From Rhodoferax sp. (GTDB taxonomy: Bacteria > Pseudomonadota > Gammaproteobacteria > Burkholderiales > Burkholderiaceae_C): a DNA stretch of 38,735 bases. The notes below the pieces were generated by a model, which made no database searches, was not told the DNA's origin, and worked only from the letters and a program-made list of their open reading frames with translations. Where the stretch lies: positions 1 through 38,735 of the forward strand of contig JAGOUM010000022.1 of the NCBI GenBank assembly GCA_018061265.1, given 5' to 3'. Below, in pieces: positions 16,275-16,408 of this stretch; the stretch's first letter is position 1, and every line of letters starts with the position of its first letter. Made by a program: the position numbers and the translations under genes.

Positions 16275-16303
16275 TTGAAACTGACAAAAAACTTTGGTAA
16301 ATT
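16275..16303 (+). promoter_or_regulatory. Predicted promoter of the hemB-hemJ intergenic RNA
   Basis: TTGAAA (16275-16280), 17-bp spacer and TAAATT (16298-16303), with a TG two bases before the -10 box. The start would fall near 16310, at the base of the first hairpin. Confidence 0.55.
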
Positions 16304-16309
16304 ACACCC

Positions 16310-16408
16310 CGGACAGTTTACTGTCCCCCGCTTTTCCTCCCTGAGCGGGGCCTTGATGTGTGACAGCAAATAGGCTTACCACCCCAGCCCTGTGCTGGGG
16401 TTTTTTTT
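16310..16408 (+). ncRNA. Candidate small RNA or hemJ attenuator leader
   Basis: About 99 nt. Hairpin 1 is GGACAG/CTGTCC (16311-16316 with 16321-16326), a TTTA loop. Hairpin 2 is CCCGCT/AGCGGG (16327-16332 with 16344-16349), with the C-rich loop TTTCCTCCCTG. Hairpin 3 is the terminator at 16382-16408. The hairpin-2 loop complements purine-rich Shine-Dalgarno sequences, like the loops of several trans-acting small RNAs. The G-rich arm of hairpin 2 can also pair with the 5' arm of the terminator, so antitermination of hemJ is an alternative. I match it to no known RNA family. Confidence 0.55.
16382..16408 (+). terminator. Strong intrinsic terminator in the hemB-hemJ gap
   Basis: CCCCAGC/GCTGGGG stem (16382-16388 with 16394-16400), five-base loop, then eight T (16401-16408). 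No plus-strand protein gene ends upstream of it, so it must end a non-coding transcript. It lies 94 bp before the hemJ start. Confidence 0.9.

What the first reader, a model, noticed from the sequence alone, without database searches (positions are those of the whole stretch)
16275..16408. Unassigned structured RNA with a C-rich loop between hemB and hemJ
A promoter with 17-bp spacing, two compact hairpins and a strong terminator with eight T make a self-contained unit of about 99 nt with no reading frame. The loop of the second hairpin is TTTCCTCCCTG, able to pair with Shine-Dalgarno regions as in anti-SD small RNAs. The unit lies upstream of hemJ on its strand and divergent from hemB, so it may either act in trans or control hemJ by attenuation. 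The G-rich arm at 16345-16350 could pair with the terminator arm at 16382-16388 as an antiterminator. I match no known family.
Basis: partly seen in the sequence, partly recalled or inferred. Interest (0 to 1): 0.75.

Follow-up and report, generated by a model that had tools for sequence, protein, structure and literature searches.

The report
anti-hemB small RNA, Comamonadaceae form
This is a small regulatory RNA of an already catalogued family (anti-hemB) that probably blocks translation of other messages through a C-rich loop, and the gene positions of its relatives suggest it is one branch of an older family that includes known small RNAs of Pseudomonas and Xanthomonas.

Summary
The unit is real but not unassigned: window 16324-16408 scores 58.5 bits against Rfam RF02837 "anti-hemB" (cut-off 49.5). 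The Burkholderia homologue ncS04 is a published 105-nt transcript (passages). RF02837 matches 54 of 60 relatives.

Two things appear new. (1) In other beta-proteobacteria the RNA lies between hemB and engB behind an ECF/sigmaE-type promoter motif (39 of 53; 2.9 expected). The Comamonadaceae form has a sigma70-type promoter (35 of 63; 1.4 expected), no second C-rich loop and no engB beside it. (2) RF02837 also hits polA/engB loci elsewhere in the class (polA and/or engB at 22 of 29 loci), the slot of ErsA, sX13 and Spot 42. ErsA-model and sX13-model matches coincide with RF02837 at 8 of 13 and at least 4 of 15 places, mostly below cut-offs.

Most likely: a trans-acting, RBS-pairing sRNA (inferred; no target found). 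hemJ attenuation is not supported: in relatives hemJ has its own -10 box about 6 nt before its start (66 of 76; 0.7 expected), although the window's own hemJ is an exception.

The parts
16275..16303 (+). sigma70-type promoter: TTGAAA, 17-nt spacer, TAAATT (TG before -10)
   Evidence: 9 of 12; Comamonadaceae-type relatives carry such a promoter in 35 of 63 vs 1.4 expected
16310..16408 (+). anti-hemB sRNA gene; predicted transcript about 99 nt (5' end inferred from the -10 box, not mapped)
   Evidence: RF02837 58.5 bits over 16324-16408; homologue ncS04 105 nt in B. cenocepacia
16311..16326 (+). 5' hairpin H1 (GGACAG-UUUA-CUGUCC), outside the Rfam model except its 3' end
   Evidence: 5 of 6 pairs change on both sides in relatives, 70.1% of cells paired
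16327..16349 (+). hairpin H2 with C-rich loop UUCCUCCCU (16334-16342), the likely seed
   Evidence: CCUCCC in 67 of 70 CM matches
16350..16375 (+). weak helix H3 (GCCU/AGGC) with loop segment GUGUGACAGCAAA conserved in the Comamonadaceae type
   Evidence: no pair changes on both sides
16381..16408 (+). intrinsic terminator, 8-bp stem plus U8
   Evidence: 4 of 8 pairs change on both sides
15191..16213 (-). hemB (ALAD, PF00490), divergent neighbour
   Evidence: E 4.4e-139
16257..16287 (-). candidate hemB promoter (TTGTCA, AATATT, 19-nt spacer), which would start hemB downstream of the sRNA, so no antisense overlap
   Evidence: no background control was run
16503..16931 (+). hemJ (UPF0093, PF03653), downstream neighbour
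   Evidence: E 4.6e-41

Best explanation
The unit is a free-standing small RNA of Rfam family anti-hemB (RF02837). It is transcribed from its own sigma70-type promoter, folds into a 5' hairpin, a hairpin that displays the C-rich loop UUCCUCCCU, a weak third helix and an intrinsic terminator, and probably acts in trans: the loop pairs with G-rich Shine-Dalgarno regions of target mRNAs and blocks ribosome binding. Shown here: family membership, structure, conservation, promoter types and synteny. Published for the homologue: transcript and Hfq binding. Inferred: the mechanism, by analogy to sX13 (C-rich loops against G-rich RBS motifs). The Comamonadaceae form is a derived variant of an RNA that in most other beta-proteobacteria examined has an ECF/sigmaE-type promoter motif and lies beside engB.
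For: RF02837 58.5 bits, cut-off 49.5. Homologue ncS04: 105 nt, Northern, dRNA-seq 5' end, 3' RACE, Hfq binding cited. 54 of 60 relatives matched at E <= 0.001, 52 over cut-off. CCUCCC loop in 67 of 70 CM matches. Double-sided changes in H1 and terminator, 44 cells vs 16.5 +/- 3.3 shuffled. Loop pairs poorly with hemB and hemJ start regions (-4.2 to -5.9 kcal/mol vs -23.7 for a perfect target), which points to trans targets. sX13 repression needs C-rich loops and G-rich target motifs (abstract and passages).
Against: No target was found: AGGGAGG-N4-11-ATG occurs 9 times in the own genome against 7 for the reversed pattern. Published ncS04 levels did not change significantly in any of seven conditions, low iron and osmotic stress included. 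Sliding the 3' partners by -3 columns gives as many double-change cells (44) though only 35% of cells pair. RNAalifold on the 33 other beta sequences recovered only H2 and H3, with covariation term -0.09. No transcript data exist here for the window's organism.
Confidence: 0.85

Rival explanations
1. The unit is a leader of hemJ: transcription from 16275 reads into hemJ and the terminator is an attenuator, opened by pairing of the G-rich arm 16345-16350 with the terminator arm.
For: Same strand; hemJ lies 95 nt after the T run; hemJ was found in 56 of 63 Comamonadaceae-type stretches; in 9 of 73 relatives the T run ends only 15-16 nt before hemJ; the window's own hemJ lacks the -10 box seen in relatives.
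Against: RNA and terminator persist where hemJ is absent (hemJ in 2 of 53 other beta stretches). 66 of 76 hemJ starts have their own -10-like box, 54 of them exactly 6 nt before the start, and 2 of 76 an SD-like 4-mer, which fits leaderless transcription. Antiterminator fold -55.6 vs -65.5 kcal/mol. The published homologue ends at the terminator.
Confidence: 0.05
2. The RNA is a cis-acting antisense or divergent regulator of hemB, as the family name suggests.
For: hemB divergent in 46 of 70 CM-match loci and hemB present in 46 of 53 and 50 of 63 pattern loci. A review says hemB was predicted as the target of Bc7 (passage); that Bc7 is anti-hemB is my inference from the Rfam name 'Burkholderia RNA 7'.
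Against: The candidate hemB promoter lies between the sRNA and hemB, so no overlap is predicted. The loop pairs weakly with the hemB start (-4.2 kcal/mol). Outside beta-proteobacteria the hits lie beside polA/engB; hemB was found at 1 of 29 of those loci, itself a same-order genome.
Confidence: 0.05
3. It belongs to, or acts as, the Betaproteobacteria 'toxic small RNA' family RF02278, growth-inhibiting double-hairpin RNAs with CU-rich loops.
For: Same general design; sub-threshold match of 25.0 bits at the same place; some weak RF02837 and RF02278 matches fall on the same places, e.g. G038:C28.
Against: 25.0 bits is half the cut-off of 50. No RF02278 match in 36 of 36 own-genus genomes that carry or could carry anti-hemB. 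20 of 20 RF02278 loci lack hemB, hemJ, polA and engB within the fetched flank and lack the ECF motif.
Confidence: 0.03

Closest known systems
Rfam RF02837 anti-hemB (Burkholderia RNA 7; ncS04 of B. cenocepacia)
   Same: Covariance-model match over cut-off across the whole 81-position model; divergent from hemB; C-rich loop; intrinsic terminator.
   Different: sigma70-type promoter, hemJ instead of engB downstream, conserved GUGUGACAGCAAA segment, no C-rich terminator loop. The promoter of ncS04 itself was not examined here.
ErsA / Pseudomon-1 (RF01719), Pseudomonas
   Same: Trans-acting sRNA in the polA-engB gap, sigma22-dependent in P. aeruginosa (passages); RF01719 matches coincide with RF02837 at 8 of 13 loci.
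   Different: Window does not match RF01719 (own genome 0); the one locus over the RF01719 cut-off (L322) has no RF02837 match up to E 0.05; polA and engB are not beside the window's copy.
sX13 (RF02232), Xanthomonadaceae
   Same: Three stems with C-rich loops, represses mRNAs with G-rich motifs near the start, always downstream of polA (abstract and passages).
   Different: Hfq-independent by that paper, whereas ncS04 is said to bind Hfq; window has one C-rich apical loop; no RF02232 match in the own genome.
Spot 42 (RF00021), E. coli
   Same: Same slot and orientation: polA (+), spf (+), yihA/engB (-).
   Different: No RF02837 match at spf up to E 0.05; no C-rich CCUCCC loop in its sequence.
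Betaproteobacteria toxic sRNA (RF02278)
   Same: CU-rich loops and terminator hairpin; 25.0 bits sub-threshold.
   Different: Absent from 36 of 36 own-genus genomes; different neighbours and promoters.

Membership tests
RF02837 anti-hemB | covariance-model score at or above the gathering score (49.5 bits) | tested here: met
   58.5 bits, positions 1-81 of 81
RF02837 anti-hemB | position divergent from hemB | tested here: met
   hemB at 15191-16213 on the - strand
RF02837 anti-hemB | expressed as a small, terminated transcript | not testable with these tools
   published for the Burkholderia homologue only
Betaproteobacteria toxic sRNA RF02278 | score at or above 50 bits | tested here: not met
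   25.0 bits
ErsA / Pseudomon-1 RF01719 | score at or above 50 bits for the window's copy | tested here: not met
   no match at E <= 0.001 in the own genome; none up to E 5 in 16240-16500
sX13 RF02232 | score at or above 50 bits for the window's copy | tested here: not met
   no match at E <= 0.001 in the own genome; none up to E 5 in 16240-16500
polA/engB-locus C-rich sRNAs (ErsA, sX13, proposed here) | gene lies between or beside polA and engB | tested here: not met
   not for the window (engB on another contig); met for engB in 48 of 53 other beta loci and for polA and/or engB in 22 of 29 wider-class loci
polA/engB-locus C-rich sRNAs (ErsA, sX13, proposed here) | ECF/sigmaE-type promoter | tested here: not met
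   window has a sigma70-type promoter; ECF motif in 39 of 53 other beta loci and 23 of 29 wider-class loci
polA/engB-locus C-rich sRNAs (ErsA, sX13, proposed here) | homology to the same RNA through intermediate sequences | tested here: inconclusive
   models coincide at 8 of 13 (RF01719) and at least 4 of 15 (RF02232) places, mostly below cut-offs; no tree of the RNAs was made
anti-SD trans-acting sRNAs | pairing with and repression of target RBS | not tested
   loop is complementary to GGGAGG; no target identified

The most novel reading that the evidence does not exclude
anti-hemB (RF02837), ErsA/Pseudomon-1 (RF01719) and sX13 (RF02232), listed by Rfam without a common clan, are branches of one old beta/gamma-proteobacterial sRNA anchored at the polA-engB locus, with C-rich anti-SD loops and originally an ECF (envelope-stress) sigma promoter. 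In beta-proteobacteria hemB replaced polA as the upstream neighbour; in the Comamonadaceae the RNA lost engB, swapped its promoter to sigma70, lost its second C-rich loop and so would have left the envelope-stress regulon. Spot 42 may be the enterobacterial occupant of the same slot.
Probability: 0.65. Interest if true: 0.65.

Novelty: new variant of a known kind. Interest (0 to 1): 0.5.

Why it matters
The element itself belongs to a catalogued family, so its presence is ordinary. What would matter is the link: anti-hemB has been a family without a function, and its relatives' position and promoter tie it to ErsA and sX13, which have known modes of action. [quoted passage not shown] the data here answer the first part for many genomes and make the second testable. 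A promoter change from ECF-type to sigma70-type at one orthologous sRNA would be a clean natural case of a regulator leaving a stress regulon.

Tried and rejected
hemJ attenuation and hemB antisense were tested and found unsupported. Membership in RF02278 was rejected.

Target search gave nothing firm. GGGAGGAA-N3-9-ATG: 3 sites in the own genome. AGGGAGG-N4-11-ATG: 9, 37 and 33 sites in three genomes against 7, 7 and 8 for the reversed pattern. Of 12 sites read, 4 open frames of 200 aa or more follow (L277, L283, L298, L241); L292 and L272 are similar in two genomes but lead into short frames and match no Rfam family up to E 0.05. No target is claimed.

The conserved segment GUGUGACAGCAAA was searched as its complement, up to 1 mismatch: 28, 34, 23 and 8 sites in four genomes against 13, 12, 11 and 2 for the reversed pattern; some of these are the sRNA itself, and I did not follow it.

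A 5-codon frame at 16356-16373 was considered and dropped, since it is not kept in several copies.

Limits of the counts. 116 of 119 pattern loci had 80 nt upstream and were counted (L098, L111, L161 dropped). The class A/B split is by sequence; L125 (Polaromonas) fell in class A but looks like B, was counted in A and dropped from alignment A2. The regex missed GGAACTTT-bearing loci such as L149, L166, L168 and L184, listed. Two genomes occur in both locus sets (L114/L038, L169/L020), which affects slightly. Loci are related, so counts are not independent events. In one search's control genomes RF02837 has sub-threshold matches in 3 of 14 (E. coli, Caulobacter, Deinobacterium), so weak matches alone prove little. 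One search's match list was cut, so coincidences with RF02232 are a lower bound; one search scanned 6 of the 15 RF02232 loci with all models. 6 of the 15 RF02232 loci lack polA and engB in the flank, and at least some look spurious. One of the 8 RF01719 coincidences (L329) has RF02837 E 0.03 only.

Statements on what is not in print rest in an open-licence library: no paper held both ErsA and sX13 or sX13 and anti-hemB, and one search listed 25 of 41 papers, none of which showed two of Pseudomon-1, sX13, anti-hemB and ErsA together. Subscription papers are mostly missing.

Full report
What is there. The window holds hemB (15191-16213, minus strand; PF00490 E 4.4e-139) and hemJ (16503-16931, plus strand; PF03653 E 4.6e-41). 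In the gap lies a promoter (TTGAAA 16275, TAAATT to 16303, 9 of 12), a 5' hairpin, a hairpin with loop UUCCUCCCU, a weak third helix and a terminator with eight T. The folding z-score is -2.97.

It is a known family. Rfam's gathering threshold gives one match in the whole window: RF02837 anti-hemB, 16324-16408 plus strand, 58.5 bits (cut-off 49.5), E 2.7e-11. A permissive scan of 16240-16500 adds only sub-threshold families, the nearest being RF02278 at 25.0 bits. In Burkholderia cenocepacia the homologue is ncS04: 105 nt, 5' end by dRNA-seq, 3' end also by RACE, Northern blots, Hfq binding cited, and no significant change in seven conditions including low iron (passages of PMC5688073). Anti-hemB is also in a table of PMC3521395 (passage).

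Distribution. RF02837 matches 54 of 60 relatives at E <= 0.001, 52 over cut-off; 6 lack it. Twenty of 35 same-genus genomes have two or more matches; the own genome has one. I examined the best 70 of 95 listed matches: hemB is divergent in 46 of 70 and hemJ downstream in 17 of 70, those 17 all in the window's genus; some loci are cut by contig ends. CCUCCC is in 67 of 70, and the other three keep CUCCC, CCUCC or a C run.

Two types. Type B (63), the window's type, carries GUGUGACAGC after H2; 46 of 63 are named Comamonadaceae, 1 Burkholderiaceae, 16 have no family name. Type A (53) includes Rhodocyclales, Nitrosomonadales, Neisseriales and Bordetella; one, L125, is a Polaromonas that looks like type B. 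In type A, 39 of 53 have GAAC[TCA]-N14-19-TC[TAC] upstream (2.9 expected from dinucleotide shuffles; strict GGAAC form 24, 0.2 expected), mostly 58-62 nt before CCUCCC; 3 of 53 have a sigma70-type promoter (0.8 expected). In type B these are 3 of 63 (1.0) and 35 of 63 (1.4). That GGAACTT/TCTnA is the ECF/sigmaE consensus is recalled knowledge. From this position a start about 28 nt before CCUCCC and a length of about 105-108 nt follow, which fits the 105 nt of ncS04 (inference; the ncS04 promoter itself was not read). Type A also has a second C-rich motif in the terminator zone in 42 of 53; type B in 0 of 63.

Structure. On 34 type B sequences, H1 has 5 of 6 and the terminator 4 of 8 pairs changed on both sides; double-change cells 44 vs 16.5 +/- 3.3 in shuffles, 0 of 500 reaching it; but a slide of -3 columns also gives 44 such cells, with only 35.3% of cells paired against 88.2%. 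H2 is invariant by selection. H3 has no double changes. On 33 type A sequences RNAalifold recovered H2 and H3 only. H1 is real in type B and lies 5' of the Rfam model.

Synteny and the wider family. In type A, engB is in the fetched stretch of 48 of 53 loci, 45 of them downstream and convergent; in type B, 0 of 63; polA 0 in both. In the own genome engB is on another contig, and in three complete or near-complete relatives it is far from the sRNA. Searching 369 genomes of the class, RF02837 matches 168 at E <= 0.001 and 21 over cut-off; 3 of 14 control genomes have sub-threshold matches. Of the 29 loci obtained, 22 have polA and/or engB in the flank, 9 both, and 23 of 29 have the ECF motif (1.1 expected). 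Negative control: 20 RF02278 loci have none of hemB, hemJ, polA, engB and no ECF motif. This slot is that of ErsA (polA-engB, sigma22; passages of PMC8575079 and PMC5819304), sX13 (downstream of polA, C-rich loops; abstract and passages of PMC3771888) and E. coli Spot 42 (polA plus, spf plus, yihA minus).

The Rfam models meet at the same places. The ErsA model RF01719 matches 13 of 369 genomes, 1 over cut-off; 12 of 13 loci have polA and/or engB, and 8 of 13 are also matched by RF02837 (L329 weakly, E 0.03). The sX13 model RF02232 matches 15 of 369, 3 over cut-off; 9 of 15 loci have polA, and at least 4 coincide with RF02837 (G141, G230, G293, G338), plus L216. One polA-engB locus with tandem copies (L306) is matched by RF02837, RF02232, RF01719 and, weakly, alpha-r14 RF02344. 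Against this: most such matches are below the families' cut-offs, and the true sX13 (L302) and ErsA (L322) loci are not matched by RF02837 up to E 0.05. So common descent is likely but not proven; Spot 42 shares only the place.

Mechanism. Trans-acting RBS pairing is the best inference: exposed CCUCCC loop, published RBS-directed action of sX13 with C-rich loops, and weak pairing with the neighbours' start regions (-4.2, -5.6 and -5.9 vs -23.7 kcal/mol). I found no convincing target. The ECF motif suggests that in type A the RNA serves an envelope-stress regulon; ncS04 did not respond to osmotic stress, low pH or the other conditions tested, which does not favour this but did not test envelope damage.

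hemJ. In type B and same-genus loci, 66 of 76 hemJ starts have TANMMT 5-8 nt upstream (54 at exactly 6 nt), 0.7 expected, and only 2 of 76 an SD-like 4-mer: hemJ looks leaderless with its own promoter. The window's hemJ is one of ten exceptions. This, the absence of hemJ in type A, and the antiterminator energy count against attenuation.

Verdict. Observation confirmed; 'no known family' wrong; trans-acting idea plausible and shared with the family; attenuation unsupported. The new parts are the Comamonadaceae variant and the probable link to ErsA and sX13.

Noticed in passing
window 16409-16503 and hemJ starts in type B loci: hemJ in Comamonadaceae relatives appears to be transcribed leaderless: a TANACT-like box sits 6 nt before the ATG in most genomes, with no SD; the window's own copy is an exception.
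   Followed up: partly
L042, L048, L050, L051, L058, L061, L065 (full size) and L049, L057, L064, L066-L070 (short, about 68-81 nt): Many genomes of the window's genus carry further, hemB-unlinked copies of the sRNA; L051 and the region of L042 hold two copies about 800 nt apart.
   Followed up: partly
L306/L323 (G230:C33), L311 (G338:C8), G322:C3: Three to four tandem copies of the RNA at one locus; in L306 and L311 that locus is the polA-engB gap.
   Followed up: partly
window 16354-16371: GUGUGACAGCAAA in the H3 loop is nearly invariant in the Comamonadaceae type; no role known. Its complement is about twice as frequent as the reversed pattern in four genomes, which I did not pursue.
   Followed up: no
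L120: A metagenome bin titled Klebsiella pneumoniae carries a beta-proteobacterial type A locus with hemB; probably a mislabelled or mixed bin.
   Followed up: no
L206 2037-2121: A c-di-GMP-I riboswitch (77.9 bits) lies near an RF02837 match.
   Followed up: no
L292 and L272: A conserved stretch with AGGGAGGAAACCGCGG, ten bases complementary to the loop, occurs in two genomes of the genus but leads into short frames; not identified.
   Followed up: partly
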